A stretch of DNA of 64,000 bases. Source: Enteropsectra breve (lineage: Eukaryota; Microsporidia). Location of the stretch: NCBI GenBank assembly GCA_024243835.1, contig JALPMN010000640.1, positions 1 through 64,000 of the forward strand, read 5' to 3'. Shown in pieces: positions 6,366 to 26,857 of the stretch. Below the pieces are notes generated by a model, which saw nothing but the letters and a program-made list of their open reading frames with translations, ran no database searches and was not told the origin of the DNA. The translations under genes and the position numbers were made by a program. Position 1 is the stretch's first letter. Each line of letters starts with the position of its first letter.

Positions 6366-6527
6366 GGGTGCAATCTAATTTAAAAATTTTAAGACAAAGT
6401 GATTTTTTTCTCTATCATAAAGTATCAAAGAACTAAGCTAAGAACGTTTGATTCTTGTAATACTAATCTATAATAATGTAAAACTAATAGAAAATAATCT
6501 GCCGTAGTAAAATATTTATTGCAACCA

Positions 6528-6791: not shown

Positions 6792-7298
6792 AGATGGGCA
6801 AGAAAAAATATGACGAAAAATATTTTAAAGAAACGGGATAGAAAAAAACAGTAAAAAGGCACACACTCTAATGCAACCAGGGCAAAAATACTATATATTT
6901 AATACATAGGCATTGCAGTGCATTTAACTTTTGGTATTTGTTGGAGCTCATACGAGTCTAGGAAAAGCAATATCGCTGTTTATAACACAACATGAAACTA
7001 TAAAAGTTGTAAAATATCCATAAAAAGAATATTACTTAATTAAGCACCCTTCTTTTATGATTTATAATGTATATTCCAATTTGAATGTGAATTCGAATAC
7101 AAAAAGATAAGTAAATTATCACCAAGATTAACTTTTCAAAGGCAGTATTTTTATCCTATGTAGTATTTGATTGATTAACGGAATATGTTATTTTCATTAT
7201 GAATTCATGCTATAGGATGATTTCCTACAGCATAGTTTTTAATTTCATATTTTTTCTTCATCACTTTAATTTAAAAAAATTAAAATTTTAGACACCTC
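6792..7298. other. Intergenic region between divergent eIF1 and HIT genes
   Basis: About 500 bp of AT-rich DNA separating two divergently transcribed genes, so it must hold both promoters. I see no ORF, RNA gene or repeat. Confidence 0.5.
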
Positions 7299-7706
7299 AT
7301 GGGATGTCTTTTCTGCACGTTGAAAGACAATAAACGCAACATTATATTTGAGAACGAATACCTGTACGTGATTTTGGACAAGTTTCCAACAAGCAGCAGA
7401 CACTTCCTGCTGATAACAAAGGAGCATGTGGTAAAGCTGGGCGATTGCAGTGACGCTGTCTTGGAAAATGTACTCAAGGCTGCTAAGGATCTCGTCAGTT
7501 CATTTGGAATGAAAAGCTATAATATTTTACAGAACAATGAAAACGGGCAGCTGATCAAGCACTGTCATTTTCATTTGATAGAGGCAAATGAAACGGGAAG
7601 GCTGACGCTCAGTGATAAGCCCAATCTCAATCTCACTGATGAGCAGTATCTGCAAATGGTTGAGGAAGCAACGCAGCAATATGAAGATTCTCAAGCATCA
7701 AAGTAA
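7299..7706 (+). CDS. HIT-family nucleotide hydrolase (HINT-like)
   Basis: 135 residues. The histidine-triad motif HCHFHLI (His 88, 90, 92) is intact and preceded by the usual GQLIKH context. The N-terminal CLFC pair (Cys3, Cys6) matches the zinc-binding start of HINT-type proteins, and the FPTSSRHFLLITKEH stretch matches the substrate-binding region. HINT enzymes hydrolyse purine phosphoramidates and aminoacyl-AMPs. Length and motif order fit a complete cytosolic enzyme. The gene is divergent from eIF1. Confidence 0.85.
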   Translation: MGCLFCTLKDNKRNIIFENEYLYVILDKFPTSSRHFLLITKEHVVKLGDCSDAVLENVLKAAKDLVSSFGMKSYNILQNNENGQLIKHCHFHLIEANETGRLTLSDKPNLNLTDEQYLQMVEEATQQYEDSQASK

Positions 7707-7899
7707 ATGTTTAAAATAAAACTTTATCGTTCTTCGTGTTTTACAAGTAAATATGCTTTATTGAAATTTTAGAATAAAAACAGCTTCATTATTTTGCACA
7801 GCATCTGTAATTTTGAGTTATTGGCTACAAAGATCATCTTTTATAAAAATATATAAAATCAAAACCTGACTAATAAAAATGCAGCTATTAAATAAATGT

Positions 7900-8313
7900 T
7901 TATTCGTTAATCTTATCAACTATTTCACCGAGGATATCCTTTGCCTCCTTGGTAAGAATATTCTCCTCATTGTCGAAGTTGAACCATCCGATCTTCTTAA
8001 GCTCTTCAATGGCAGAGTGGTTTACAAAGTCAGATGCTCTAGCAAATTTGGTTGGTCTTACTCCACGGTTTTTTCTGATTCCGTATCTGTGGGCAAGTCC
8101 CTTACGGCTGACTGTTCCGAATCTCATGGCCTGTCTTACGATAGCTGCCATTCTGACATAGTACCAGTCTGGGTTTTCTGGAGAATACTGCTTTCCATGG
8201 CCTGTCTTTATAATATCGTGGTTTTCCGGAAGGGATATGTTTCCATTGGATTTGAGGGTGTCTACGATGGCATTTATCAATGGTTTTGGCTGAACTCTGA
8301 AGACGCTATCCAT
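7900..8313 (-). CDS. RPS19: Ribosomal protein eS19
   Basis: 137 residues, full-length for eS19. Diagnostic blocks are LPENHDIIKTGHGKQYSP, WYYVRMAAIVRQ, GLAHRYGIRKNRGVRPTK and the C-terminal ALEKIG-type block (ELKKIGWF). eS19 sits in the 40S head and is needed for 18S rRNA 3' maturation. The start codon is preceded by GCGCCCATATG, giving a CCC motif 3 bases from the ATG. No intron is apparent. Confidence 0.93.
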   Translation of the reverse strand: MDSVFRVQPKPLINAIVDTLKSNGNISLPENHDIIKTGHGKQYSPENPDWYYVRMAAIVRQAMRFGTVSRKGLAHRYGIRKNRGVRPTKFARASDFVNHSAIEELKKIGWFNFDNEENILTKEAKDILGEIVDKINE

Positions 8314-8664
8314 ATGGGCGCAAAATTTGTAAAAAATTTTTCTTGCTTGAGTAGAAGAAGCAGGAAAGTAAAGAGGAAGTAGTTTTTATTCTGATTGCTA
8401 ACCGAAGATTCTATAAGTATGTATTTTAAGGGCTTTGATAGCAGTTAGTGAATATCACCTTTTTATTTTAAGCATTGAAATATGTGGTCAAATGCTAACG
8501 CTGAGCCACATATTTTCTAATGTGGCTTGCCTCTAGTCATATATGAACTTGGTTCATCATATGGCTTTGTGCTTTAGTTTTTAGCTGATATAATAGTGGC
8601 TGTCTATATTTCAAGTGCATTTTTTCAAATTTGGTTTTAAACAACATCAAGAATAAACCCTGAA

Positions 8665-8714
8665 TATGCAATACTTATTGTACTACAATTATGCAATACT
8701 TATTGCACTACAAT
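8665..8714. repeat. Two tandem 25-bp units
   Basis: TATGCAATACTTATTG.ACTACAAT occurs twice in direct succession with one mismatch. It lies in the 500-bp gap between eS19 and the next PHO88-like gene. Confidence 0.7.
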
Positions 8715-8835
8715 TATGAAAATGCTACCTGAATTTAGTATTAGTATGTTAGAAATGTAAAAAAATGTACATGCATGCACAAAATTTATTTTCGATAAAC
8801 AGCTTTCTTAAAAACAGTAATATCATAGCATTAAT

Positions 8836-9414
8836 TTAATCCTCTTTCTTTCTCTTCTTGTCAATTTTCTGGACTGAGTCATTATCCTTTATCTCCTCAA
8901 CCTCAGGTCTCTTAGGCTCGTAAAGCTTAAACTTATTGTATGGGCGCACACTTGGAATGTTAAAAAGATATGCATGATAAAGAGAGTTGAAAGCCAGATT
9001 CTTGAAAAGAGTGATGATCTTCCCCACAAACATGTAATTGACATTCCACTTGTAGTGCATGAAAGCGATAGCAATTGGGTAGAAAATCAACACTATTGAG
9101 CTTAAAAGGGGACTGCACTGAGACGTTTCGTATTCGCAGACCGTCACCTCCCTCTCAGCAGCATCGGAACTATTGAAGTATCCCGTCCTTGGCAGTTTAA
9201 TAATTCTCTTGTCATTTATCTTTTTAATTCTGTAGAAGATGAACATAGACAGAGCGATTTCTACAAGACATGCTACTGCAAACATGATTCTTACCCAGCA
9301 TACTACATCTGGCCTCATAAGGAATGGGCTTTTGTTGATTTGCATGCTGAACATCTGGATTGTCATGTTTGTGAATTGCTCAAGAGACTGCAATGAGTTT
9401 CCGTACTCGAACAT
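8836..9414 (-). CDS. PHO88/SND3-like ER membrane protein, copy 2
   Basis: 192 residues. It has a membrane segment near 45-65 (VRIMFAVACLVEIALSMFIF), then KIIKLP-type basic residues, the VTVCEYETSQC motif and the FMHYKWNVNYMFVGKI block. This last matches the GFMHLYLKYTNPLFMQS region of Pho88/Snd3. It ends with the KKRKKED tail shared by all copies. The ATG directly follows TTTTACCC (plus-strand GGGTAAAA at 9415-9422). In yeast, Snd3 helps deliver proteins with central TM segments to the ER; the role here is inferred. Confidence 0.78.
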   Translation of the reverse strand: MFEYGNSLQSLEQFTNMTIQMFSMQINKSPFLMRPDVVCWVRIMFAVACLVEIALSMFIFYRIKKINDKRIIKLPRTGYFNSSDAAEREVTVCEYETSQCSPLLSSIVLIFYPIAIAFMHYKWNVNYMFVGKIITLFKNLAFNSLYHAYLFNIPSVRPYNKFKLYEPKRPEVEEIKDNDSVQKIDKKRKKED

Positions 9415-9422
9415 GGGTAAAA
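9415..9422 (-). promoter_or_regulatory. TTTTACCC start-proximal motif
   Basis: Minus-strand TTTTACCC abuts the ATG of the PHO88-like copy 2. The same motif abuts the starts at 10588 and 11695, and AATTTTACCC lies 3 bases before the ABCE1 ATG. This CCC-type element is the typical microsporidian initiator context. Confidence 0.6.
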
Positions 9423-9480
9423 TTTTTTAAAAAATCAAAATAGTTCGTAAATGCGTTTGAATTGTAACAGTATTATCATT

Positions 9481-9681
9481 TTAATATATCATTTGATCAT
9501 CATACGCTAAAAGATCATTATACTTCATTTCTATTAAAAGTCCATGTACAATTTTTTTCGCCCAGCGTGTAGTACTTTTTATTTTAAGTGAAGGTTTCTG
9601 AGAACTACAATATGCTAGCGTATCCCTGCTCTCAGCAATCATTTCCTGGGGCCAGATGTTTAATTTTTCAGCCAGTCCCAT
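9481..9681 (-). CDS. Small ORF of unknown function
   Basis: 66 residues, not recognised. A TTTTCCCTAA sequence lies roughly 20 bases before the ATG, weakly supporting a gene. The product is soluble, with two tryptophans and no cysteine pattern or signal peptide. It lies 67 bp upstream of the PHO88-like copy 2 on the same strand. It could be a chance frame. Confidence 0.35.
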   Translation of the reverse strand: MGLAEKLNIWPQEMIAESRDTLAYCSSQKPSLKIKSTTRWAKKIVHGLLIEMKYNDLLAYDDQMIY

Positions 9682-10018
9682 AAGTATTTTGAATTAGGGA
9701 AAATATTTTTTATTAAACATAAGCCATGCTATCATTGTGTTTTCTCAACTGTAATCAACATGCAACATTCTTTTGATATTTGATAGAAGTGAATATATTT
9801 TTAAAATCAGTTTCTGAAATAAAGAATAGAGCACTTGAGATCTACACATGACAGCTTCTGGTACAACAATGTAAACAGAAAAACTCCTTTTACTGTTCGA
9901 TAGAACAAAAGCCTAGCATCGCTACTGATGTTTCTTTATAAAGAAAGAATTTCTGGATTTAGCACTAGAAAAACTTTATTTTTTAGAAAACTAACACTAA
10001 ATGCATAATATAAAACGT
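9682..10018. other. Intergenic region
   Basis: AT-rich DNA between the small ORF and PHO88-like copy 3. No gene, repeat or RNA seen. Confidence 0.4.
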
Positions 10019-10588
10019 TTAATCCTCTTTCTTTCTCTTCTTGTCAATCTTCTGGACTGGCTCGTCATCGGTGATCTCTTCTACTTCAGGCTTCTCGGTA
10101 GTCTGGAAGAGCATATTTCTGTTGTATGGGCGTAAAATTGTCTTATTGAAAAGATAGGCATGGAACAGTGAGTTGAAAAGCAGATTCTTAATGAGAGAAG
10201 TGATCTGCAACACAAACGGGTGAATAACATTCCACTTATAGTGAACAAAAGCGACACCAATGGGATACAACACAGATGAGCTTAGTAGGGACTTGCACTG
10301 TGACAAATCATACTCACGAACAGTCATTTCAACCTCATCTGCATCGGCGCCTGACAGGATTCCCGACTGTGCAACTTTAATAACAGTCTTGTCATTTTTT
10401 TTATTGATCCTGTAGTAGATAAACAGGGACAGTGCGGCCTGGATCACGCTTGTTACTGCAAAAGTTACTCTTATCCAGAATAGCACATCTGGCCTCATCA
10501 TGAACGGCTTTTTGGTGATTTGCAGGCCTACGAGATGGAGTGCCATGCTAGCGAATTGCTCTATTGACTGCAATGAAATTTCAGCCAT
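10019..10588 (-). CDS. PHO88/SND3-like ER membrane protein, copy 3
   Basis: 189 residues from the Met at 10588. The frame opens further upstream to 10627, but the ATG at 10588 directly follows TTTTTTACCC, as in its sisters, and the preceding residues have no family match. Features are a TM segment (FWIRVTFAVTSVIQAALSLF), the DKTVIKV basic loop, the VEMTVREYDLSQC motif (family TVKDYDL), the FVHYKWNVIHPF block and ILRPYNR near the end. The tail KIDKKRKKED is identical to copy 2, and the last about 30 coding bases are nearly identical at DNA level. This indicates recent duplication or conversion. Confidence 0.8.
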   Translation of the reverse strand: MAEISLQSIEQFASMALHLVGLQITKKPFMMRPDVLFWIRVTFAVTSVIQAALSLFIYYRINKKNDKTVIKVAQSGILSGADADEVEMTVREYDLSQCKSLLSSSVLYPIGVAFVHYKWNVIHPFVLQITSLIKNLLFNSLFHAYLFNKTILRPYNRNMLFQTTEKPEVEEITDDEPVQKIDKKRKKED

Positions 10589-11125
10589 GGGTAAAAAATT
10601 TTTTACAAATAAACAATGAAAAAACAATAATTTAAAACGAGCAAGATTTTTATTCGCGAAGGCTTTAAAACATGTTTATAGCATGACTATACAATACAAT
10701 TGTTATATATGCTATAAATACTAGATAATATATATTTTCGAGGTCATGTGGGCCTTCTTATCATCCATCAATACCACTATTTTTTCATTTGCAATAAGGT
10801 CTCGCTTATAACTAGATTTTTATTTCAAGTTTTTATAAAGTTCAAAAGCCTTGGTGCTACATCTTTTATAAAATAAAGACCTATTCGGATTTCTAATATA
10901 AGCATAGCTATTTTTAAAGAATCCATTGAATTTCACATAATACAAGATTAATTTTCAAAACAACTGTATAAGTTAGGATCTAATCTGGGCTATCGAACAT
11001 TAAAAAAACAGTTCTTTCTTACTAGACACAATTTTATTGAAATTTAATCAGAACTCTGGTTGTGGCTTTTTCAACATCCCTAATGTCTATTGCTACGCAA
11101 TAACGTTTTTTAATTATAAAGCGCT
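10589..11125. other. Intergenic region between PHO88-like copies 3 and 4
   Basis: About 540 bp of AT-rich DNA with no supported gene. It contains the start-proximal TTTTTTACCC of copy 3 (10589-10598 on the plus strand as its complement). Confidence 0.45.
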
Positions 11126-11695
11126 TTAATCCTCTTTCTTTCTTTTTATGTCGTTCTTCTGGGCCATTTCATCATCCTTTATCTCATCAACTCCAGATGC
11201 TTCGGGTGCCTCAAAAAGCATATTTTTACTGTATGGCCGCAAAATTAGCTTGTTAAAAAGAAAAGCATGGTAAAGCGGGTTAAAAAGCAGATTCTTAAAG
11301 AGCGAAACAATTTGCATCACAAAAAAGTTCATAACACCCCATTTATAGTGCATTAAAGCAATAGCGATAGGAAACAACAATGCCCAGCGTATCTGGTTCT
11401 TTGCCTGTGACAAATCATACTCACTGACAGTCATTTCGACTGTTTCAGTATTTGGGATTACAAAGAGGCCAGTTTTTGGTACTTTAATAACAGTCTTGTC
11501 ATGGCTTTTTTTGACTCTAAAGTAGATGTAGAATACTATGATTGCTCGTACTAGGCACGATACAGTAAAAGATATTCTTATCCAGAATAGCACATCTGGC
11601 CTCATCAAATACGGCCTGTTCGCGATTTTTGCTCTTAGCAAGTTAAGAAATATATCCATTGACTGTTCCACTGTCTGAAAAGAAAGTTCTACCAT
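11126..11695 (-). CDS. PHO88/SND3-like ER membrane protein, copy 4
   Basis: 189 residues, closest to copy 3. It carries the TM segment FWIRISFTVSCLVRAIIVFY, the DKTVIKVPKTGLF loop, VEMTVSEYDLSQAK, the hydrophobic ALLFPIAIALMHYKWGV block, the KNLLFNPLYHAFLF helix and LILRPYSK. It ends KKRKKED-like (DIKRKKED). The ATG follows CTTACCC. With copies 1-3 it makes a four-member local family on one strand. Most fungi carry a single PHO88/SND3 gene, so the expansion is notable. Confidence 0.8.
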   Translation of the reverse strand: MVELSFQTVEQSMDIFLNLLRAKIANRPYLMRPDVLFWIRISFTVSCLVRAIIVFYIYFRVKKSHDKTVIKVPKTGLFVIPNTETVEMTVSEYDLSQAKNQIRWALLFPIAIALMHYKWGVMNFFVMQIVSLFKNLLFNPLYHAFLFNKLILRPYSKNMLFEAPEASGVDEIKDDEMAQKNDIKRKKED

Positions 11696-14362: not shown

Positions 14363-16180
14363 ATGGCAAAAAACGATGATAAACAATCTCTCAAGAGACT
14401 TGCCATTGTGAATGAGGAGCTGTGCCGCCCGAAAGAATGCAACCTCGAGTGCAAAAAGGCGTGTCCGGTCAACAGAATCGGAAAGCAGTGCATCACGATA
14501 GGCAAAGTCTCCCAGATCAGCGAGACTCTATGTATTGGATGCTCCGCCTGTGAGAAGAAGTGCCCCTTCAAGGCAATTACCATTATAAATTTGCCAAACA
14601 ATCTGACGAAGGACTGTTCGCACCGCTACGGAGAGAATTCCTTCAAGCTGCACCGCCTTCCGGTGCCGAAAATTGGAAAAGTTCTGGGGCTGGTTGGCAC
14701 CAACGGTATCGGAAAATCCACGGCACTGAAGATCTTGGCTGGAAAACTCAAGCCTAATCTCGGCCAGTACGAGAAGGAGCCTGAGTGGGCAGAGATTCTT
14801 AAAAACTATAGAGGCAGCGAGCTGCATGGCTTCTTTACCAAGCTGCTTGAGGAAAAGGTGGCAACATCCAACAAAATACAGTACATTGACAAGATACCGA
14901 AGATTCTGCAGAAGCGCTTTGAAAATAAGGAAGTGACTGTCAAAGAAGTGATTGAGAAAATGGATGAGCGGGGAATGAAAGACTATTACATCAGCAAGTT
15001 TTATTTAAAAAATATTATGAGCCGTCAGCTGACTGAGCTTTCAGGGGGAGAGTTACAGAGATTTTGCATCGCAGTTGCCTGCATGAAAAATGCAGATCTC
15101 TATGTTTTTGACGAGCCCTCCTCGTATTTGGATGTAAAGCAGCGTTTGACAGCAGCAACTGAAATAAGAAAGCTGATAACTGACAACAAATATGTTTTAG
15201 TTGTTGAACACGACTTGGCCATCCTTGATCTCATGTGTGACTATGGGTGTGTTCTGTATGGTGCCAGTGGAGCTTATGGCGTAATAACTGCACCACAGAG
15301 CATCAAGGCAGCAATCAACATTTTTCTGGATGGCTTTATTCCCACTGAAAATATGCGCTTCAGATCCGTTGGTCTTAAGTTTAATATACAGGAGCCAGAA
15401 GAGGGGAAATCCAGCGAGGTCCAGCAGTTTACGTATCCAAAGATATCAAAGAGCTTCGAGAACTTCAAAATAGAAATATCAGAAGGAAGTTTCCGCAGCT
15501 CGGAAATTGTAGTATTTCTGGGAGAGAATGGAATGGGAAAGACAACATTTGTTAATATGATCGCAGGAAAGCTTGAAAATGACCAAAAGTTGGAGTGTTT
15601 CGGAATGTCTGTGAGCCTCAAGCCACAGAAGATTCTTCCGAAGTACAAAGGCACTGTACGAGACTTGTTTACTGCCAAAATAAGAGGCGCATTCTACGAC
15701 CAGGCGTTCTACACCGAAGTCATAAGGCCACTGAATATCGACTATATTTTGGATCAGCCAGTGGCAAATCTTTCGGGGGGAGAATTGCAAAGAGTGGCGA
15801 TCATCGTGTGTTTGGGAACAGATGCATCGGTGTATCTCTTGGATGAGCCCAGCGCGTACCTCGACTCAGACCAGCGTATTGCCATTGCAAAAATAATAAA
15901 GAAGTATATTTACAGCAAGAAAAAGGTAGCTTTTATCGTTGAGCATGATCTTATTGTTGGAACGTATCTGGCTGACAAGGTTATTGTGTTTGAGGGCGAG
16001 CCCGGAGTCCACAGCACAGCAAGTGCCCCAATGAAGCTTGCTGATGGAATGAACATATTCTTGAAGAACCTGGATGTCACTTTTAGAAGGGACTCGGACA
16101 ATTACAGACCGAGGGTTAACAAGCCTGAGAGCACGAAGGACAAGGAACAAAAGGCATCAAACAACTATTTTGGTGTGTAG
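14363..16180 (+). CDS. RLI1: ABCE1/RLI1 ribosome-recycling ATPase
   Basis: 605 residues, full length. The N-terminal Fe-S domain has both clusters of cysteines (CRPKECNLECKKACP and CIGCSACEKKCP). NBD1 has Walker A GTNGIGKST (about 112-120) and signature LSGGELQRF. NBD2 has GENGMGKTT and a second LSGGELQRV, with VFDEPSSYLD and LLDEPSAYLD as the Walker B/D-loop regions. ABCE1 splits post-termination ribosomes and needs its Fe-S clusters, making it a major client of the mitosomal iron-sulfur pathway. AATTTTACCC lies 3 bases before the ATG. The coding region is more GC-rich than its flanks. Confidence 0.96.
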   Translation: MAKNDDKQSLKRLAIVNEELCRPKECNLECKKACPVNRIGKQCITIGKVSQISETLCIGCSACEKKCPFKAITIINLPNNLTKDCSHRYGENSFKLHRLPVPKIGKVLGLVGTNGIGKSTALKILAGKLKPNLGQYEKEPEWAEILKNYRGSELHGFFTKLLEEKVATSNKIQYIDKIPKILQKRFENKEVTVKEVIEKMDERGMKDYYISKFYLKNIMSRQLTELSGGELQRFCIAVACMKNADLYVFDEPSSYLDVKQRLTAATEIRKLITDNKYVLVVEHDLAILDLMCDYGCVLYGASGAYGVITAPQSIKAAINIFLDGFIPTENMRFRSVGLKFNIQEPEEGKSSEVQQFTYPKISKSFENFKIEISEGSFRSSEIVVFLGENGMGKTTFVNMIAGKLENDQKLECFGMSVSLKPQKILPKYKGTVRDLFTAKIRGAFYDQAFYTEVIRPLNIDYILDQPVANLSGGELQRVAIIVCLGTDASVYLLDEPSAYLDSDQRIAIAKIIKKYIYSKKKVAFIVEHDLIVGTYLADKVIVFEGEPGVHSTASAPMKLADGMNIFLKNLDVTFRRDSDNYRPRVNKPESTKDKEQKASNNYFGV

Positions 16181-16387: not shown

Positions 16388-17368
16388 TTATAAGGCATGT
16401 ACAATCTGTTCGCTGTTCACATTTACGCCGCCTACCACTAAACCAGAGTGATTTTGGTTTGTTCGTGGAGTATCTATTTGCACCGAAACATGTGCAATTT
16501 CAAGTTCTTTCTTGAGATAGTTTGTGATATTAAGCATCAAGGTTTCGTATTCTGAGATCGATAGTCTGTCTGCCAGGACATTCAGCATTATAGCATGTTG
16601 GTTTACTGAGACGGACCATACTCTCATTGTATTGATCTTTATAACAGAGCCAAAACTCAACATCTTTTCCCGTATTTTATTCTGATCAATTTGCGCGGGT
16701 GCACCCTCAGCCAGAATGAAGATCGCATCTCTCAGAATGTAAATCGTTGTGCACAGCACTAATATTGCAAAGAAGAGTGTGCAAAACACATCTGCGATCA
16801 CAAGCTTGGGCCAGAAGTATATTATTCCTGATGCGATGATAACCCCTACCGACTGCACGATGTCTCCCACCACATGCACAATCGTTGCCCGCATATTCAG
16901 GTTCTTGTTGCGCATATCATGTGAATACTCTTCGTGGTGCAGCACATAGACACAAAGCAGGTTTACAAAGAAGCCCATTACAGAAATTCCAAAAAATGTA
17001 AAACCGTCTATCTCGGTGGGGTGCATGTATTTGTGGAAAGACTCAACAGCCAAATATCCTATAGCCGCCCAGATAAGCACAATCGAAAGCAGTGCTCCCA
17101 GGATCTCGGCACGCTGATAGCCGAATGTCATTTTGCTATTTTCGTGCCTCTTTGATATTTTTAAGGTTATTATACTCACAATGAATCCTGATAGATCTAC
17201 GAGCAGATGGAGTGCATCTGCAAGAAGACTGAGCGAATGCGTTTTGTAGTGCCCCCAGAGCTCTATCGCCATGAAGATGAGAATTATAAACAGCACTCGG
17301 GTTATTTTCTTGATGTCTGTATCGTGCGAGCATGTGTGATGTGAGCAATGCGCATGATCTTTTCCCAT
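16388..17368 (-). CDS. Cation diffusion facilitator zinc transporter (ZnT/Zrc1-like)
   Basis: 326 residues with about six TM helices and a cytosolic C-terminal domain. The N-terminus is His/Cys-rich (HAHCSHHTCSHD). The two zinc-site motifs are SLLADALHLLVD (TM2) and HVVGDIVQSVGV (TM5), giving the HxxxD pairs of ZnT-type transporters. FGYQRAEILGALL between TM2 and TM3 is a strong family mark. It should move Zn2+ out of the cytosol, into a vesicle or the Golgi. The usual long His-rich loop between TM4 and TM5 is reduced to a short HHEEYSHD. Confidence 0.9.
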   Translation of the reverse strand: MGKDHAHCSHHTCSHDTDIKKITRVLFIILIFMAIELWGHYKTHSLSLLADALHLLVDLSGFIVSIITLKISKRHENSKMTFGYQRAEILGALLSIVLIWAAIGYLAVESFHKYMHPTEIDGFTFFGISVMGFFVNLLCVYVLHHEEYSHDMRNKNLNMRATIVHVVGDIVQSVGVIIASGIIYFWPKLVIADVFCTLFFAILVLCTTIYILRDAIFILAEGAPAQIDQNKIREKMLSFGSVIKINTMRVWSVSVNQHAIMLNVLADRLSISEYETLMLNITNYLKKELEIAHVSVQIDTPRTNQNHSGLVVGGVNVNSEQIVHAL

Positions 17369-18096
17369 GTTTTATCATTCCGCAGCGCTTTTATTCTTGT
17401 TTTACTGTAAAACCACTTGTAAAACTCTTCAGCTGTTTTTCTGAAACGAAATGTGGATTTAGCCGGATGAGACAAGCAGCGAACCTGTACATAAAGATCT
17501 CAACATATACCACAGACTCTTAAAATATGTTTTGTTTGAAATTATACCATAATAAGATGAAGCGGCCAGTAGATTGCATTTATGGGAATAAAAAAGGATT
17601 TATTCAAGCATTATTTTTTTAAGTTCCTTATAAAGACTTCAAAAATAAAATCAAATAGAAAAGACCAGTATCATTTTAAAAATTTGTGCGTATTTTCATC
17701 AGAAAATACTTCGTATGTACCATACAGTAATTAGAAAACTGTATTAACATCTTCTTTGCGATATGGCAGGGTTAAAATTTTTACAAAATTTTCATGATAA
17801 AGAAATAACCAGAGCGAATAAGCTTTTGAGAGATGACAAAATAAAGTAGGAAGTCATGTATTTAATTATTGTGCTATTTGAGTTTAGACATAAATCAGTT
17901 TATATATAGTCTTATGTTATGTTCATTATTTATTTTTTTGATATGCAAAGGCACAGGATGCTAGTTAGGTATTCATAGTACGAGGTATATGTTTAAAGGA
18001 TTATCAAGAGAGTCAGGAGAGAATAACTTACAAGAACGGAAAGAGACTTAAAATGCAGTTTGACCATTTCTTAAATTAAAAAAAATAAAATCTATA
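17369..18096. other. Long intergenic region before tRNA-Cys
   Basis: About 730 bp, AT-rich. No ORF, repeat or further RNA gene is visible. Confidence 0.45.
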
Positions 18097-18168
18097 AGGA
18101 CGCAGCGGGAGTCGAACCTGCGACATACCGGGTTGCAGCCGGAGGCTCTACCACTGAGCTATACGTCC
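18097..18168 (-). tRNA. tRNA-Cys (anticodon GCA)
   Basis: 72 nt, intronless. The acceptor arms GGACGTA/TGCGTCC pair with one G-U; the D arm is GCTC-AGTGGTA-GAGC; the anticodon loop CTGCAAC gives GCA. The T loop is TTCGACT on a GCAGG/CCCGC stem with one A-C mismatch. The discriminator is U, as in eukaryotic tRNA-Cys. It marks the border of the small secreted protein cluster. Confidence 0.93.
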
Positions 18169-18403
18169 TCAAAAAATAAGATAGATAGCTTAAAGAATAG
18201 CTAAGCTGTGAATCTCACAATAACAAGCTCAATTCATTTTGTTGCCGGTCAATTGACAGTACGATGTTTACCGTAAAAATGACATTATAATAATAAAAAT
18301 AATTTTAGGTACTTAATCAGCAGGGCAATGAATCATTAAGATTCATGTTAGCGAAAAAAGACACATAAACGTATATAACTTATAATATTGCACTAAATAT
18401 TCA

Positions 18404-18637
18404 TTAAATAAAAAGCTCTTTTAACTTCTTCATTTTAACTACCTGCCAGCATATACGTTTCATTTTTCTGCAATATGCTGATTCCGTGCAACTGTGCACA
18501 TGCTCCTGGCAGTATTTAACCCAGCTATCCAAGTCTTTTTTCGGCGACACTGTCGGGGCTTCAAGTGCAAATACTATCGACGCAAATAATGCGATTAGTA
18601 AAAATGTGCAAAGCATCCTTTTTACGACGCTTTTCAT
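18404..18637 (-). CDS. Small secreted 4-Cys protein, family member 1
   Basis: 77 residues. A strong signal peptide (MKSVVKRMLCTFLLIALFASIVFA) is followed by a mature peptide of about 53 residues. The core is LDSWVKYCQEHVHSC then TESAYCRKMKRICW, which gives C-x6-C-x5-C-x6-C-W. The same spacing recurs exactly in seven neighbours. Four cysteines suggest two disulfides; the hydrophobic residue before the first Cys and the W after the last are also family marks. No known family recognised. Likely exported to the host interface, by inference. Confidence 0.75.
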   Translation of the reverse strand: MKSVVKRMLCTFLLIALFASIVFALEAPTVSPKKDLDSWVKYCQEHVHSCTESAYCRKMKRICWQVVKMKKLKELFI

Positions 18638-18783
18638 ACCTTTTTTGCGCTTTTGTTTATAAATAAAAAAATGATTGTTCTCATATAATTACGATCAAAG
18701 ACAAAGATGATATCAAATGCCAATAGGTGCGGTAAACTATAATAAAATAACTTCATTTTAGCTTTAAGCAGTTAATATTTTAT

Positions 18784-18984
18784 TCAGATGGGTAGCCAGC
18801 AGGGAGATCCGTTGGAATGCTCGCTGTTTTGATTAACACAGCCTTCCACTTTGATACTGTGGTATAGGCTCTTTGTCGTATTCATAAGTTTTTTCCTCTT
18901 GACAGCAATTACTTTTGCCTGCAAAAGACCCGCAAACAACAGTATGAGAATTATAACAATCAGGATCATGATTTGACGTTTCAT
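18784..18984 (-). CDS. Small secreted protein, divergent relative within the 4-Cys cluster
   Basis: 66 residues with an N-terminal hydrophobic signal or anchor (IMILIVIILILLFAGLLQA). The mature part is basic and has only two cysteines near the end (GC...SPCW), keeping a terminal CW but not the four-Cys core. Position, strand, size and secretion signal tie it to the cluster. It may be a diverged or partly decayed member, or an unrelated short secreted protein. Confidence 0.5.
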   Translation of the reverse strand: MKRQIMILIVIILILLFAGLLQAKVIAVKRKKLMNTTKSLYHSIKVEGCVNQNSEHSNGSPCWLPI

Positions 18985-19733
18985 TCCAATGTGGCTAAAA
19001 ATTTCTTTTATAATACTGAAATGATATCAGCGAAATAACTGTTGATAAAATTTCGCGTAAAACTGAAATATCCGCAGAAATGATGTGACTTTCCAATGAA
19101 ACCATTTCAGGATATCTTTTGAGTTTTATATTGATCTTTGAAAAGAGCCTGTACATATTTAATCACCTTCGAAAACTGTGCCAAGAGTAAAATTGCAATA
19201 CATTTTTTTTATTTGGCTGTTGATATTGCAGAAAGATTGAAAACTGGTAATATATCATATCAAATTAAACTCTATTTTTGATTTAGCATGGTAATAACTT
19301 AAAGACATAAAGTCTAAGAATATTTGAAAAATTCTGGCATATTCTCACAGACATAGAAAACGCCGCTTTATCAACTATCCGCTGTTGCTCAGACCTGCCG
19401 TAATTTCATTTTTATGCCTTAAAATGTGTGCTAAAGAAAGATTGCTGGCTTTTGTGAGAGTATCTTTGATTCATAATCAGAATTATTTGAAGAAATTCAG
19501 GTACAGTTGCTACCGTCGAATACTAAAGAAATAGCTTTAAATTTTTAAGCTATAAGATTTGTTTTGTGGGAAATATCTTTATGTGCTGCTAAATGATAAC
19601 GAGTGCATTATACAATGGCGTGCGTACCTACCGGTTGCAGAAGTCAGATATAAGATAGGAATAAATACAAAAAATTGTTGAAAAGCAATAGTTATTTGAA
19701 GCCTTTAATGCATTTAAGCTTCTATCAAATATT

Positions 19734-19964
19734 TCAGTCGGAAGGCTCGTTGGCTAAGTATCTTTGCGATATTTCTCTGCATCTCATTAAATATTTCAAG
19801 CATTCTGAGCTTCGCATGCAATCGTTTCTTAGATGCATGCATACGCCCTCCCAGTAAATCAAATCCTGAAAAATCTTTCGTGCAGCTTCAGACGTGCATA
19901 TAGCAGGTAGAACTAGCATCATGCAAATTCCAGCTATAAGTAAGGCACGATATATCCCTTTCAT
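19734..19964 (-). CDS. Small secreted 4-Cys protein, family member 2
   Basis: 76 residues. The signal peptide is about 1-27 (RALLIAGICMMLVLPAICTSEA). The mature core is EGVCMHLRNDC then MRSSECLKYLMRC, with the exact C-x6-C-x5-C-x6-C spacing. The aromatic residue after the fourth Cys is replaced by Arg, and the tail is longer than in sisters. The start follows AAGGGTA rather than a CCC motif. Confidence 0.72.
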   Translation of the reverse strand: MKGIYRALLIAGICMMLVLPAICTSEAARKIFQDLIYWEGVCMHLRNDCMRSSECLKYLMRCREISQRYLANEPSD

Positions 19965-20578
19965 TACCCTTCTTTCAAAATTTTTTATTAAAAACTTTAA
20001 TCTTTTAATAAATTAAAATTATGAGGTCAATTGGTATTAAACAAGAAGTTATTGTGGTTAAATACTCTATAGCAGTATGAATAATTAGCAGTATGATTTC
20101 TTAATCATGCAATTGATATATTTGTGCAAGCTAGCGACTATTAATCACGATTCCAGGATTGATCTTATCTTTCTTTGCACCTCAAGGTTTTTACACATGA
20201 AAAAGGAAAACTCGTGTATGCAGACAGGATACCATTACCATACTTTACTACACAGCATGCATAACGTACAACTCTAAGCAATGAAAATCACAATTTTCTT
20301 CAGAAATCAAAAAATATTTTTCGATAATATTCCTTAAAAACTCAGAGATTTTACTAAGTAGATCTATAAAAACTATTACTTAAGGCTTATTTCTATTATG
20401 AGGCATTTTTGCGCTTATTTAAAATGGATAGTATGCGACACTTTAAATGTTAAGAGAAGGCTAAACTAATGTGGGGTAAGAAAAATAACGCTAAGTTTAG
20501 CTAGATTATTGAAATTTACCTACTATAGAGCAAGATTCTGTGTAATGGCCAGAACAATACCCAAATTCTTGATTTTTA

Positions 20579-20809
20579 TCAGTCAGCGTATTCCTTTTTG
20601 AGCACTCTATTTGCTATTTTCCAACATGTCTGTTTGAAATGCTCACAGAATGCATCCTTTTGGCATTCGTCTTTTAAGTTTTTGCAAAAGGCACTCCAGT
20701 CCATCGATTCAAGTAGTCCCCCGTGTGTTTTGCCTTTTGATAGTACGAAGGGCAGAGTCGATAGTAGAAGCGCTGCTGCGAAAAGAATAATAAAAAATAT
20801 TCTCATCAT
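20579..20809 (-). CDS. Small secreted 4-Cys protein, family member 3
   Basis: 76 residues (start at the first or second Met). The signal peptide is MRIFFIILFAAALLLSTLPFVLS. The mature part has MDWSAFCKNLKDEC then QKDAFCEHFKQTCW, again C-x6-C-x5-C-x6-C-W, with the tryptophan four residues before the first Cys as in member 1. It ends with a short basic/acidic tail. Function unknown. Confidence 0.75.
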   Translation of the reverse strand: MMRIFFIILFAAALLLSTLPFVLSKGKTHGGLLESMDWSAFCKNLKDECQKDAFCEHFKQTCWKIANRVLKKEYAD

Positions 20810-21134
20810 CGCTGTTCTAATAGTAAGTTTTTATATCATTTAAATTAAAAATAATAAAACCGAATTCTTAATTAAATTTTAGTGATTAAAATATAACCAT
20901 ATTGATATAACAAAGAGAAATAAACATTAAAATTGAAAAGGTTTTATCACTGAAAGCTGCGAAAGGTATTTTAAATTAATATGAAGGTTTCTTCATCCAC
21001 TGACACAGGTTCGGTTTATTATGAATTTATAATCATTAATTTATAAGAGAATTTTAAAAATGCTGAAAAGATAACTCTTCAAAACGACGTATACTCTCTT
21101 TGCATGCGCAAAATTTGTTACCTTTATTATTTTA

Positions 21135-21347
21135 CTAATAACCTCGTATCATCCAGCAAATCATGTTAAGTATCTTACATTCTTCTGGGGATTCGCATTC
21201 ATAGCTCTTGTCATTGCATATTTCTACATAATCGTCCAAAAAGTGAGTATCCCCCTCTAGGGAAATCTTACAAGTAATGACTGAAATGCTAATCACGGCT
21301 AAGAGCAAGAGCAGCAATGGGATGGTTAATCTCAAGCAAAAATGCAT
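21135..21347 (-). CDS. Small secreted 4-Cys protein, family member 4
   Basis: 70 residues with signal peptide LTIPLLLLLLAVISISVITC. The mature core is LDDYVEICNDKSYEC then ESPEECKILNMICW, with invariant cysteine spacing. The net charge is acidic, unlike members 1 and 6, which illustrates how freely the residues between the cysteines vary. Confidence 0.75.
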   Translation of the reverse strand: MHFCLRLTIPLLLLLLAVISISVITCKISLEGDTHFLDDYVEICNDKSYECESPEECKILNMICWMIRGY

Positions 21348-21699
21348 AATTTTGCGAAAATATTAGTGTATTAAAATGTTCTAATCATAAAATTAAAATC
21401 ACAAAAATAAAAATCATAAATATTATTTTCCATATTTGGGCATTTGTGCTGGGAGAAATGGCATTGGTAATGCCAAAAGAATTTATTTCATATGACAAGG
21501 CTCTTGTAATCCTCTACATCTCAAGATGTTGCGCGTTTAAGCGAGCAGGAGAGGCTTTTTGAATATATTTTGTTCAAAACTCTACTTACTGTCACAATGG
21601 AGAGAAGGAAAGTTTTTTCAAAAAATTGTTAATAGCACATATTTATTCACTTAGAATGAATAAGTTCCTGATTCAGGTTAAGTTTAAAACTCATATTTG

Positions 21700-21875
21700 T
21701 CTCAAATATTTCATATATGCTTGCTGGGCCAATGATTATGGCTTTTCTTCGCAGCGCCATTTCACCACATTCTGCTATACACACTCAGCTCATTTAATAA
21801 GTCTCAAACTAGCAAAATTCCCGTTCAACAATGCAAAAACAAGAGTAATAATAATCAATACAATGCTATGCGTAT
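21700..21875 (-). pseudogene. Possible broken member of the small secreted family
   Basis: In the roughly 900-bp gap between members 4 and 5, one minus-strand frame reads a signal-peptide-like run (SIVLIIITLVFALLNGNFA) without a Met. It then continues through two stops with a VVKWRCEE stretch. Its position matches where another array member would be expected. No full cysteine core remains, so the link is tentative. Confidence 0.3.
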
Positions 21876-22247
21876 TAAATCGACAAATTAATCAGGTATT
21901 GAGAAGTATTTTGTATTTATACATGGACTTAAAATGGATATACTTAGCGAATATCAACTTCTTCATTAATCTTTTATTGTCTTGAAGTAGCAGGTGTTTC
22001 CATATACTAAAATTGCTCTCTTGCCACAATAACATTTTGCTTCTTCACCCATGATTTATCGCAAGATTTCTATTTTCGGTACACGCGCCAACAGGCTCCA
22101 AAATATTAATGCGAGTACGAAAGAAGACTCAAAGAAAACCAAAAGCCTATATATGTAGTAATAAGACAAGGTAATATGCACATTAGAATGGATTTAAGGA
22201 AAGCAGGATAAAATGCATTATTAAAGATAATTTATTTTTGCAACAAA

Positions 22248-22454
22248 CTAAATTCTGTCGCCAAAAAAATAGCATATCCTCTTTAAGAATCTACAGAATT
22301 CACTATCTTTGCACTCTATGCCATCTCCTTTGCATTGCTCAATGTAGTCGCTTAAATCAATAGATCCGTAGTCTTTCATCTTTGAAGCAGCTGACAGCGA
22401 AACAGCAGCAAGTAATAAGAGCATAATCAAACACATTTTTATCTCGCTGTGCAT
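22248..22454 (-). CDS. Small secreted 4-Cys protein, family member 5
   Basis: 68 residues with signal peptide IKMCLIMLLLLAAVSLSAAS. The mature core is LSDYIEQCKGDGIEC then KDSEFCRFLKRICYFF, with C-x6-C-x5-C-x6-C and Tyr in place of Trp after the last Cys. The FCRFLKRIC segment is very close to member 7's LCVKLKRIC and member 1's YCRKMKRIC. Confidence 0.75.
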   Translation of the reverse strand: MHSEIKMCLIMLLLLAAVSLSAASKMKDYGSIDLSDYIEQCKGDGIECKDSEFCRFLKRICYFFGDRI

Positions 22455-22768
22455 GAAGTATCATAAAATTCACATTATAAGCAATTGATTTTCTCAATAT
22501 TTGATTAAAATTAAATATTGATCAACATCAACTATTGTATTTTATAACGCACGTACGAGGACAGCACACGTTAACTTGCGCCATTTTCGCATCTCTTACG
22601 ATTATGACCTTTGAAAAAATATTTTTTTTGCTTCCAAAACCACTGCTGTAGGTATTATTCTTCCGATCAATAATTTTGGCAAGACCTTAAGCTTGCATGC
22701 CAAACTTGGTCAGCTTGAATAAATATTTAATAAAGTTATACTTGAATTCTTATTATAGTATAAATAAA

Positions 22769-22981
22769 TCATTCTTCTTTAAGCATCCAGCATATTCTGT
22801 CCCTCAGCTTACAATCCGCCACGTTATTGCACCTGTAGTAATCACTATTGCATCTCCTCTTCCATGTATGATAGAAATCCAAAGGCTCATGCCTTTCAAA
22901 CGCTCCGCTGTAAGATGCTAATGACAAGCCCACAAGCACCATAATTACAAGCACAATTAGTAGCTGCGTTACTCTTTTCAT
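22769..22981 (-). CDS. Small secreted 4-Cys protein, family member 6
   Basis: 70 residues. The signal peptide is QLLIVLVIMVLVGLSLA. The core is FYHTWKRRCNSDYYRC then NNVADCKLRDRICWML, with exact spacing. ACCC directly precedes the ATG, the clearest start-context match in this cluster. The mature peptide is strongly basic. Confidence 0.76.
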   Translation of the reverse strand: MKRVTQLLIVLVIMVLVGLSLASYSGAFERHEPLDFYHTWKRRCNSDYYRCNNVADCKLRDRICWMLKEE

Positions 22982-23345
22982 GGGTTTCTATTATAAAATA
23001 AATAAAAATTCCTAAATATCATTTTTTCATATATTTGAATTGAACATATCTCTCAATATTTTTGATTTTATTTCTCGTACATAGAATATAGAGTTAATAA
23101 ATGATTTAAACATATCTTAGTTGCTTTGAGTTGTATTTCAGGCGCTAGTAGTCCCGAAATTGTGATACGATGATCGTTTTAAAAAAAAGTTTTGTTTTTT
23201 CAAAGAAGGCGTGTTGGGGAAAGACGAATGATTTTTTTAAACACAATTTAAAAATATTGAAAGCGATTACTGCATTATACAGTTTAACAATATACTGGTC
23301 ATTAAAATGAATTTGATAAATTTGTTGCAGATTCATTTAATCCTT

Positions 23346-23507
23346 TCAAATATTGGGGCAGATCCCAAGTGTACGGCCAATTGCGCACTTTTGATACAAC
23401 GGGTCGGTGTCCTTTTTCACGCTATGAACTTTGAATGCTGTGCCCAGCGAGACAATGGACAAGAGTGCGATTACTACATATAAAAATAGCTTTTTTCCCG
23501 ATATCAT
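23346..23507 (-). CDS. Very short secreted peptide, truncated relative of the 4-Cys family
   Basis: 53 residues: a signal peptide (KKLFLYVVIALLSIVSLGTA) plus a mature segment of about 30 residues ending YQKCAIGRTLGICPNI, with only two cysteines. It sits in the array between members 6 and 7, same strand and similar spacing. It could be a family member that lost its second half through an early stop, or a separate peptide. Confidence 0.5.
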   Translation of the reverse strand: MISGKKLFLYVVIALLSIVSLGTAFKVHSVKKDTDPLYQKCAIGRTLGICPNI

Positions 23508-23843
23508 ATTCAAGGGTCGGCTAGAATATTTTTGTTTTTTAATCTTAATTAATTAAATCATGAAGACTTAAATTAAGAATCGATCTCATCTTACTATACT
23601 TATAATTTTTGTTTATTATTCAGCAAAGATAAGCATTCCTCATGTTCTTAGCTTTCTCTAGGACGCCTTTAATCCATACAGAGTCCTTTGAATAAACTGC
23701 ATTCAAAAATTCATCATACAATGCTTAAAGATGGGAGCATGAGGAAAATATGTATACATTTAGCAATCCTATACTCGTTTTACACTTCAACTGCGATAAA
23801 AACGAATTTAAAATGATTATATTTAAAGGCTTAGTTTAATATT

Positions 23844-24056
23844 TTAAATACCAAGCATAAAGAGGCATATCCTTTTCAATTTTACACAGAGTTCAGTATT
23901 ATCGCATATCTCACTAGTATTGTTACACACTTTATGGAGCTTGTCCAGATCGATTCTTTCTCTTCTGTCCATTATTACGGCCGCTGCTAGCGGAGAACAC
24001 AGGCCTACTAAAAATAGCAGTGCTACAACGAAAACAAAGCCTTTGGTTTCATACAT
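23844..24056 (-). CDS. Small secreted 4-Cys protein, family member 7
   Basis: 70 residues with signal peptide GFVFVVALLFLVGLCSPLAAA. The core is LDKLHKVCNNTSEIC then DNTELCVKLKRICLFM, with invariant spacing and Leu in the position of the usual Trp. It has one potential N-x-T sequon, though microsporidia largely lack N-glycosylation. Confidence 0.75.
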   Translation of the reverse strand: MYETKGFVFVVALLFLVGLCSPLAAAVIMDRRERIDLDKLHKVCNNTSEICDNTELCVKLKRICLFMLGI

Positions 24057-24622
24057 CAGGCTTCATTCCGAAGTGCCTATAAACAAATACACAAATCAAC
24101 TGATTACACCTCAATTTGATTAATTTTATTTTGGATATCATTTAAAGTGGCCAAAGCGACGTAGATACACTAAATAACTTAAACAATACATTATTTGTAA
24201 GGCAGCCGAATATTTAAAGCAATACATATAGTATTACGAGCTTTTGTGTTGAAATTCATGCATTTACTTGAAGAATAAGATTTGATTCTAAATGACCTGA
24301 AAATCTTCGCATTCTTAAGCTTTATTTATGTAAATCTTAAGCAATAAACAACGTTATTTTATACGCTAAAAGACAAGCATGGGCTTTCTGCATCAGGTTT
24401 CTTTTCTGTTCAACAGATAAAACAGATCATAGTTTTCTACAATGCGAAAACTGCACTTTGTAGTAGACATAAATGTTCGTAAAGTTAAGGATATCACTGG
24501 CATTTTATATGCGTTGAGCAGTTGCCGAAAATGTGAGAAATATTTTTGGATGGTATACCAGGAACATTTCATTTAAGCAAAAATAAATAATAAAAAGTAC
24601 ACAGTATAGCTTGAACAATCCT

Positions 24623-24838
24623 TTATTTTGTGTAACTCATAAACCAGCATACATTTCTCTTCATTATACAGTCCTTTTTAGTCTCGCAACGCCATCCAGG
24701 ATTGTTGCAGCGCTGTTGCCATTCATCCAGGCTTACTTTAGACTCGCTATGGTCTGGTCTTGCATACACTAAATAACTGCTGAGCAGTATCAGCAAGCTT
24801 ATCAGTATTATCATCCATATTTTATTACGTAATAACAT
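24623..24838 (-). CDS. Small secreted 4-Cys protein, family member 8
   Basis: 71 residues with signal peptide IWMIILISLLILLSSYLVYA. The core is LDEWQQRCNNPGWRC then ETKKDCIMKRNVCWFM, with exact C-x6-C-x5-C-x6-C-W and the LD.W lead-in shared with member 1. It is the last recognisable member on this side of the array. Confidence 0.75.
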   Translation of the reverse strand: MLLRNKIWMIILISLLILLSSYLVYARPDHSESKVSLDEWQQRCNNPGWRCETKKDCIMKRNVCWFMSYTK

Positions 24839-25825: not shown

Positions 25826-26857
25826 ATGTTTCTACAGGTCTCGAATGCGTATGGGGGAGAAATAGCCACTTTGCAAATTATAGATGATGGTGAGGTAGAA
25901 TACCAGCAGACAGAAGATAAAAATGCAAGAAACTTGAAAGCATGCGATAGAGCTTTATATCCACTGCGTGGCAAGAAACTCTCCCGTAAAAACGACCGCG
26001 AAAACAGAAAGGTCCAAATAAACGGATACATAGAGACAAACAATGTGAAAATGCTACACCTCACTTCATATTTCGTGGAAATAAAAGACTCCTTCTGTAT
26101 TAAGCTGCCAGCAAAGATCATCCCGTCCTTCAAGTCCCATAATTTCAGTGTGTATTACGAGTGTGTGTTTGCAACACCAAAGAAAGAAAAAATAAGAATA
26201 GAAATTTACAATGACAATATTTATATGTATGAAGAGAGGAGGTACGTCCTTTCTATATACAGTGACATTGGGGTTCTGCTTTCAAAGGGGGAGGCTATAA
26301 CTCATAAAACACCATCAGACGTTAAAGGAATTATTACAAAAAATAATAAGCCGTATTATGAGATGAAGAAAAAGGTTATTGATTTGCATTTAAACGAACA
26401 GTCTTTATCAAATGAAGAGCGTGACAGGCTATACGAAGCTTGTAAGGAGCTATATCCGATGTTCAGCAACCCAAATATTGTTTATAGGGCAAACCAAGAC
26501 ATAAAAGAAGTAATTGTGCTGCCTGTGTGGATAGACGGTGCAAGTATCGCCACGATTTCTATGCCACGATATGCTTTTCAGGATTTTGTCCTAAATATCA
26601 AGTTCAAAGAGAATATCAAAATAACAGAAGTGCTGCTTGACAAATATGAATATGAGGGCAGCAGTTTGGTCCATGCGGAGAATGTAATGAGAAAGCTGCT
26701 GGATACAGATATGGCTTTTGAGAGGACTGTTTATTTCAGTCTTCACGAATACACAGTAAGAAATTTTATTTTTAGAATCGAGTTTGTGCTTTTCATCAAG
26801 ATGGATGGAAATGAAATAAAAATACCAATTGAGATTATCGACAGCAAGGCTCTGTAA
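25826..26857 (+). CDS. Possible arrestin-fold trafficking protein (RGP1-like?), otherwise unknown
   Basis: 343 residues, soluble, rich in beta-strand patterning. The stretch SFCIKLPAKIIPSFKSHNFSVYYECVF resembles the LP..LPPSFKG..hVxYxh strand pair of arrestin-like proteins and of Rgp1, the Golgi Rab GEF partner. The segment DFVLNIKFKENIKITEVLLDKYEY has the alternating pattern expected in the second sandwich. There is no RGP1-specific signature I can be sure of, so the fold call is weak. The start is the first ATG; the sequence before it is a run of T and A with no CCC motif. Confidence 0.5.
   Translation: MFLQVSNAYGGEIATLQIIDDGEVEYQQTEDKNARNLKACDRALYPLRGKKLSRKNDRENRKVQINGYIETNNVKMLHLTSYFVEIKDSFCIKLPAKIIPSFKSHNFSVYYECVFATPKKEKIRIEIYNDNIYMYEERRYVLSIYSDIGVLLSKGEAITHKTPSDVKGIITKNNKPYYEMKKKVIDLHLNEQSLSNEERDRLYEACKELYPMFSNPNIVYRANQDIKEVIVLPVWIDGASIATISMPRYAFQDFVLNIKFKENIKITEVLLDKYEYEGSSLVHAENVMRKLLDTDMAFERTVYFSLHEYTVRNFIFRIEFVLFIKMDGNEIKIPIEIIDSKAL

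What the first reader, a model, noticed from the sequence alone, without database searches (positions are those of the whole stretch)
18404..24838. Tandem cluster of at least eight tiny secreted proteins with invariant C-x6-C-x5-C-x6-C spacing
Eight minus-strand ORFs of 68-77 residues (18404, 19734, 20579, 21135, 22248, 22769, 23844, 24623) each have a strong signal peptide. Each mature peptide of about 45 residues has exactly the same four-cysteine spacing, usually preceded by LD.W/Y and followed by W. Residues between the cysteines vary freely and net charge swings from acidic to basic. No gene of another type interrupts the array for 6.4 kb. I know of no microsporidian or fungal family with this spacing. 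Exact spacing with free sequence points to a disulfide-stabilised scaffold under diversifying selection, as expected of host-exposed effectors or ligands.
Basis: partly seen in the sequence, partly recalled or inferred. Interest (0 to 1): 0.88.

Follow-up and report, generated by a model that had tools for sequence, protein, structure and literature searches.

The report
Hidden family of tiny secreted peptides
A microsporidian parasite carries a tandem array of eight tiny secreted-looking peptides sharing a four-cysteine, probably two-helix scaffold, plus a dozen scattered relatives, in a size range that gene annotation can throw away.

Summary
Eight minus-strand ORFs of 68-77 aa carry C-x6-C-x5-C-x6-C; the motif occurs nowhere else in the window, and 30 simulated windows held two in all. 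All eight have a hydrophobic, signal-like N-terminus.

New here: 12 related genes on seven other contigs, so at least 20 members. The spacing is not family-wide: gaps are 6/7, 5/6/8 and always 6. AlphaFold2 predicts the same two helices in two members, at moderate confidence.

Diversifying selection is not supported: 5 of 6 recent paralogue pairs show purifying selection, one does not reject neutrality. The array itself is too diverged to test.

No known family matched. But the protein search missed even this genome's own array members, so its negative says little. A survey of related microsporidia dropped proteins under 100 aa lacking database hits, a plausible reason such families go unseen.

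Best reading: a lineage-specific secreted "large gene family" in miniature, probably host-exposed, on a disulfide-stapled helical scaffold. Secretion, disulfides and function are inferred.

The parts
18404..18637 (-). array member 1, 77 aa, signal-like N-terminus, C-x6-C-x5-C-x6-C
   Evidence: AlphaFold2 model
19734..19964 (-). array member 2, 76 aa, same spacing
20579..20809 (-). array member 3, 76 aa, same spacing
21135..21347 (-). array member 4, 70 aa, same spacing, mature part net -6
22248..22454 (-). array member 5, 68 aa, same spacing
22769..22981 (-). array member 6, 70 aa, same spacing
23844..24056 (-). array member 7, 70 aa, same spacing
24623..24838 (-). array member 8, 71 aa, same spacing
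   Evidence: AlphaFold2 model of the mature part

Best explanation
The eight genes are the tandem core of a lineage-specific family of at least 20 tiny secreted peptides. Each is made with a cleavable signal peptide, enters the ER, and folds into a two-helix hairpin held by two disulfides: helix 1 is roughly LDxWxxxC, a loop carries the second Cys, and helix 2 is CxxLxxIC. The scaffold frees the surface to vary, and local duplication, segmental duplication and divergence give each copy a different surface. The peptides leave the parasite and most likely act on host-cell proteins, as members of the secreted 'large gene families' of other microsporidia are thought to do. Shown: ORFs, cysteine pattern, relatedness within the array, the wider family (weaker), purifying selection in 5 of 6 recent paralogue pairs. 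Predicted: signal peptides, two helices. Inferred: disulfides and their pairing, secretion, host exposure, binding role.
For: Motif 8 of 8, absent elsewhere in the window. Signal-like N-terminus 8 of 8 against 3 of 48 control ORFs. Relatedness beyond Cys spacing. Twelve relatives on seven other contigs. Four Cys in 20 of 20 at 16% mean non-Cys identity within the array, with synonymous TGC/TGT switching at Cys codons (19/1, 19/1, 10/10, 17/3 over the 20), so the residue is kept, not just recently copied; part of the set was picked by a four-Cys filter. Between C89 and C153 the matches over the three genes are the ORFs plus about 47-64 nt upstream, with three other short matches elsewhere. Nonsynonymous divergence lies below flanking divergence in two duplicated blocks (p 0.0012 and 5e-6). 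Two AlphaFold2 models of different members, made from the same eight sequences, give the same two helices. A targeting signal, large family size and clade restriction are the three properties enriched in host-exposed proteins of Nematocida (PMC5423893, passages).
Against: No transcript or peptide evidence. Selection measured in relatives is purifying or neutral, not diversifying. pTM is only 0.45-0.51, and disulfide pairing could not be read. With cysteines masked, no array-array pair reaches E<1e-3 and no array-dispersed pair reaches E<1e-2, so kinship of array and dispersed members leans on the Cys pattern: 4 of 72 pairs at E<1e-3 against at most 2 in 20 shuffles. Clade restriction is not established.
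Confidence: 0.58

Rival explanations
1. Structural peptides of the spore wall or polar tube: small secreted proteins whose cysteines form inter-chain disulfides and so help harden the spore.
For: Signal-like N-terminus and four conserved cysteines; a microsporidian spore wall protein with four conserved cysteines is reported (PMC5697631, listing and abstract start only); purifying selection in 5 of 6 tested pairs.
Against: A wall component would hardly need 20 paralogues with array surfaces from -6 to +6 net charge; two helices with cysteines at fixed spacing suggest intra-chain bonds (inference).
Confidence: 0.17
2. Antimicrobial or anti-competitor peptides released in the host (gut or tissue), acting like plant alpha-hairpinins or defensins.
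For: Small, secreted-looking, cysteine-bearing helical peptides; 6 of 8 array members have net positive mature parts.
Against: Two of eight are net negative (-6, -2), four are only +1, and one reaches +6. The only antimicrobial-type Pfam family listed for the 20 scanned members is AtDEF-like, at E 0.008 for one member.
Confidence: 0.09
3. Peptide signals between parasite cells (density or stage signals), each copy with its own receptor.
For: Tiny secreted-looking peptides with one scaffold and many surfaces; no direct evidence.
Against: No candidate receptor family was looked for; an intracellular parasite with a reduced genome is an unlikely place for 20 ligand-receptor pairs (general knowledge).
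Confidence: 0.04
4. Non-functional ORFs or relics that happen to keep a signal-like N-terminus and cysteines.
For: No expression data; low coding density in the stretch; two signal-like two-cysteine ORFs lie among the members; the C89/C153 pair does not reject neutral change.
Against: dN below dS in 5 of 6 pairs, coding conserved above flanks; Cys kept with synonymous codon switching. Open frames were required for listing, so their intactness is not independent evidence.
Confidence: 0.02

Closest known systems
Microsporidian secreted large gene families (NemLGF1, NemLGF5, PanLGF1, EbrLGF1 and others; PMC5423893, PMC10393165)
   Same: Ten or more paralogues in one genome, N-terminal targeting signals (for the secreted ones), local duplication, mostly no recognised domain, apparent clade restriction.
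   Different: Members here are 68-77 aa with a four-cysteine scaffold. The word cysteine has 0 hits in the main text of either paper; the 2023 survey discarded proteins under 100 aa without a UniRef90 or Pfam hit.
Alpha-hairpinins (plant two-helix peptides, recalled)
   Same: Small secreted peptide, two helices, four cysteines, two presumed disulfides.
Twin CX9C / CHCH proteins (recalled)
   Same: Helical hairpin with two pairs of cysteines.
   Different: Nine-residue spacing and mitochondrial location without a signal peptide (recalled); here six or seven and a signal-like N-terminus.
Nodule-specific cysteine-rich and defensin-like peptide arrays of plants (recalled; Arabidopsis LURE cluster in PMC3525529, listing only)
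   Same: Species-specific families of tiny secreted cysteine peptides with variable surfaces, often clustered.
   Different: Different organisms, spacing and (for defensins) a beta-sheet fold; an analogy of working only.
Ricin-B-lectin-like clusters of Spraguea and Nosema (PMC3749934, passages; PMC9224602, listing)
   Same: Clusters of secreted proteins proposed as effectors.
   Different: A recognised lectin domain; no Pfam lectin match in the peptides.

Membership tests
Microsporidian large gene family (definition in PMC5423893 / PMC10393165) | at least 10 members in one genome | tested here: met
   20 members, 17 if three near-copies are dropped; a lower bound. The eight array members alone would not suffice, so this rests on kinship with the dispersed genes
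Microsporidian large gene family (definition in PMC5423893 / PMC10393165) | at least 50% with signal peptide or transmembrane segment | tested here: inconclusive
   20 of 20 have an N-terminal hydrophobic core, but hydropathy stands in for SignalP, and the neighbour scan that found group C at C89 and C153 selected for it
Microsporidian large gene family (definition in PMC5423893 / PMC10393165) | clade-specific | tested here: inconclusive
   none of 579 and 413 word-sharing candidates from about 5.8 billion proteins scored E<=10 with profiles of 8 and of 20, but the window's own members were not returned either
Microsporidian large gene family (definition in PMC5423893 / PMC10393165) | host-exposed (expected trait of such families) | not testable with these tools
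   needs proteomics of infected host
Alpha-hairpinin | CxxxC-Xn-CxxxC motif (recalled) | tested here: not met
   gaps 6/7, 5/6/8, 6 in 20 of 20
Alpha-hairpinin | two antiparallel helices | tested here: inconclusive
   two helices in both models; packing not read out, pTM 0.45-0.51
Alpha-hairpinin | C1-C4, C2-C3 disulfides (recalled) | not testable with these tools
   coordinates were not returned; needs mapping
Twin CX9C / CHCH | CX9C twin motif (recalled) | tested here: not met
Defensin (CS-alpha-beta) | helix plus beta-sheet with a CxxxC pair (recalled) | tested here: not met
   no strand in either model; no CxxxC among the four conserved Cys; one weak AtDEF-like match, E 0.008, 1 of 20 members
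Ricin-B-lectin-like effectors | ricin B lectin domain | tested here: not met
   no lectin family among the 14 Pfam families listed at E<=1 for the 20 members

The most novel reading that the evidence does not exclude
Microsporidia of this clade hold a whole layer of disulfide-stapled mini-proteins under 80 aa, sent into the host as a diverse binder library, that annotation rules have hidden. The four tandem Pho88/SND3-like genes 6.7 kb from the array reflect an enlarged SRP-independent ER entry route suited to such short cargo.
Probability: 0.1. Interest if true: 0.8.

Novelty: new variant of a known kind. Interest (0 to 1): 0.55.

Why it matters
Which microsporidian proteins act inside the host is largely open, and candidate lists start from annotated proteins. 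Here a family of at least 20 secreted-looking peptides seems absent from a protein collection that does hold the neighbouring ABCE1 of the same contig, and a survey that includes close relatives states a filter that would remove such genes. If the peptides are expressed, effector catalogues are missing a size class, and the fix is cheap: rescan existing assemblies without the 100-aa filter. The four-cysteine scaffold also gives small, synthesisable proteins for direct binding and structure work.

Tried and rejected
Diversifying selection in the array: not testable, since mean non-Cys identity is 16%; tested in dispersed paralogues instead and not found.

Subtelomeric location: eight loci lie near contig ends somewhat more than chance (Fisher p 0.031), but no TTAGG array was seen at the 12 ends looked at (one of which was unreadable), and contigs may break at repeats. 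Left open.

Family tree: 1 of 17 inner branches starred and long branches meet, so whether the array is one clade is unresolved. Rfam scan of the 14 fetched contig pieces (112,180 bases): no match.

ORFs 18784-18984 and 23346-23507: considered as degenerate members; neither linked to the family at E<=0.05 in the all-against-all comparison, so left out.

Organism: not named by any tool. ABCE1 places it near Glugoides and Pancytospora. Enteropsectra breve was considered because it is not listed under its own name among the 120 rows shown, but this was not tested.

Print: paper searches showed 20 of 111, 20 of 163, 20 of 84, 4 of 4, 20 of 97 and 3 of 3 papers; none of the titles or abstract starts shown describes this spacing or family. 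I read passages of PMC3749934, PMC5423893, PMC10393165 (also its sections 6 and 8), PMC4759460 and PMC8745461; no supplements, no whole paper.
Full report
WHAT IS THERE. The window is bases 1-64000 of a 70,560-base contig (C145) in an unnamed 3.96 Mb, 155-contig genome. Eight minus-strand ORFs of 68-77 aa lie at the stated coordinates, and each has C-x6-C-x5-C-x6-C. No other open frame on either strand of the window has the pattern; 30 Markov-1 simulations gave two in all. The first-ATG protein of each has a hydrophobic N-terminal core (best 13-residue mean 2.92-3.56), 8 of 8 at 2.8 or more against 3 of 48 other 60-85 aa ORFs; 3 of those 48 have four or more cysteines after residue 26, and none has both. 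The flanking genes are ordinary: ABCE1 (14363-16180 +), a cation-efflux transporter (16388-17368 -), a tRNA-Cys (18096-18169 -), then after the array a 343-aa protein without a Pfam match at E<=0.01 (25826-26857 +).

ORGANISM. ABCE1 of the window is 76% identical to Glugoides intestinalis, 76% to Pancytospora philotis and 73% to P. epiphaga, with other microsporidia following among the 120 rows shown. PMC10393165 (section 6) places Pancytospora and Enteropsectra in the Enterocytozoonida clade beside Vittaforma. The species itself is not known to me.

A WIDER FAMILY. The own genome can be searched by single proteins. Eleven such queries were run, seven of the eight array members (not 21135) and four relatives, and pieces of eight contigs were scanned for signal-like cysteine ORFs. 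The chain of weak hits runs: 18404 finds C34 (E 2.9e-4); C34 finds C89 and C103 (8e-6) and C153 (0.0015); neighbours of these give groups B and C; group C finds C108, C87 and C19 (2e-10 to 5e-8). Result: 12 more genes on seven contigs. Group A: C34, C89, C103, C153; gaps 7-5-6. Group B: C89, C103 (7-6-6) and C153 (7-5-6). Group C: C89, C153, C108, C87, C19; gaps 7-8-6. On C89 and C153 one gene of each group stands in a row on one strand. In all 20 the last gap is 6 and the four cysteines are invariant, though the neighbour scan itself required four cysteines. One search counts one TGA inside each of the two B matches on C103 and C89: it is their own terminal stop, reached because the C153 query is longer. 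So the array's exact spacing is one variant of a family pattern C-x6/7-C-x5/6/8-C-x6-C. Counts are lower bounds, as the tool states.

IS IT ONE FAMILY? On mature parts only, 19 of 28 array-array pairs reach E<1e-3. With cysteines fixed and all other residues shuffled, 20 trials gave at most 3. For array against dispersed members (three near-copies dropped, 72 pairs) 4 reach E<1e-3 and 11 reach E<1e-2, against at most 2 and 4 in shuffles. With cysteines masked no array-array pair reaches 1e-3 and no array-dispersed pair reaches 1e-2. Array kinship is thus well supported. Kinship of array and dispersed groups is supported but leans on the cysteine pattern. A tree does not resolve the groups.

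SELECTION. In pairs recent enough to test (NG86; Fisher tests on rounded counts, uncorrected), nonsynonymous change is below synonymous change in 5 of 6: A89/A153 mature pS 0.53, pN 0.13, p 2.8e-5; B89/B153 mature 0.54 and 0.21, p 0.0014; B89/B103 mature 0.26 and 0.03, p 0.0007; C87/C19 mature 0.13 and 0.009, p 0.007; A89/A103 whole gene 0.08 and 0.008, p 0.015. C89/C153 mature does not differ (0.37 and 0.25, p 0.25), nor do the signal parts of A89/A153 and B89/B153 (p 0.57, 0.26). Wider pairs are near or at saturation. Duplicated blocks C89/C103 (3,973 aligned bases, 92.5%) and C87/C19 (1,479, 87.8%) let coding be compared with flanks: nonsynonymous divergence is lower than flanking divergence (genes A and B pooled, p 0.0012; C87/C19, p 5e-6). 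Against this reading, gene B as a whole differs between C89 and C103 at 17 of 207 sites, above the flanks' 6.5%; most of that is synonymous. Between C89 and C153 the matches over the three genes are the ORFs plus about 47-64 nt upstream, with three further short matches outside. These are therefore most likely functional coding genes under constraint. Diversifying selection was not found where it could be tested and could not be tested in the array.

MECHANISM. Most likely: signal peptide, ER entry, oxidative folding into a helical hairpin, secretion, and action on host partners through the variable surface. The first steps are predicted or inferred from sequence; the last is inferred from what is known of microsporidian families with the same traits: proteins exposed to the host in Nematocida are enriched in targeting signals, large gene families and clade-specific proteins (PMC5423893, passages). 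A structural role in the spore is the main rival.

WHY UNSEEN. Profiles of 8 and of 20 members found nothing at E<=10 in a collection of about 5.8 billion proteins, where only 579 and 413 word-sharing candidates were scored. The same collection does hold the window's ABCE1 on a 70,560-base contig, yet the array's own proteins were not returned, which suggests they were never called as genes. The methods of PMC10393165 (passage) state that proteins under 100 aa were kept only with a UniRef90 or Pfam hit. An orphan family of 70-aa peptides would fail that rule. So absence elsewhere is not shown.

NOVELTY. The kind, secreted lineage-specific gene families of microsporidia, is known (PMC5423893 passages; PMC10393165 section 8). 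A family of sub-80-aa peptides on a four-cysteine, probably two-helix scaffold did not appear in the listings of six paper searches (the longer listings were capped at 20). I rate it a new variant of a known kind.

A NEIGHBOUR WORTH NOTING. Four tandem Pho88/SND3-like genes lie at 5808-11695 (all above Pfam's cut-off). [quoted passage not shown] that passage assigns short cargo to the GET route). A link to the peptides is speculation. One search for Pho88/SND3 with microsporidia listed no paper on it.

Noticed in passing
window 5808-6365, 8836-9414, 10019-10588, 11126-11695, all minus strand: Four tandem genes matching Pho88/SND3 (PF10032, E 4e-12 to 6e-30), the other three 26-29% identical to the first; a fourfold set of an ER-targeting receptor subunit in a compact genome is odd.
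   Followed up: partly
window 18784-18984 (-) and 23346-23507 (-): Two further ORFs with a strong signal-like N-terminus and only two cysteines, lying among the array members; the second has a GACCCTT stretch just before its ATG like gene C89. Not linked to the family by sequence.
   Followed up: partly
window 18096-18169 (-): A tRNA-Cys gene (GCA) directly beside the cysteine-rich array; probably chance.
   Followed up: no
window 2074-2964 (-): ISXO2-like transposase domain protein (PF12762, E 8e-13) near the contig end.
   Followed up: no
window 3261-4070 (+) and 4499-5314 (+): A tandem pair of similar-looking 269-271 aa proteins without a Pfam match at E<=0.01; their likeness was seen by eye, not scored.
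   Followed up: no
C89:6892-10835 and C103:2251-6205 (L039, L040); L056:5630-7083 (C87) and L058:8035-9500 (C19): Duplicated blocks at 92.5% over 4 kb and 88% over 1.5 kb that carry peptide genes; could be recent duplications or separately assembled homologous copies.
   Followed up: partly
upstream of the peptide genes, within about 50 nt of ATG: AAATTT-like runs in many, and CC/CCC just before ATG in several, of the 20 genes; similar to promoter signals recalled for microsporidia, not tested against a control.
   Followed up: partly
L014:1625-1894 (+): An ORF with a CCHC zinc-knuckle-like motif beside the C34 peptide gene, possibly a retroelement fragment.
   Followed up: no
C145:70051-70249 and L054:4841-5041 (C108): A 201-base match at 79% between the far end of the window's contig and C108, possibly a dispersed repeat.
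   Followed up: no
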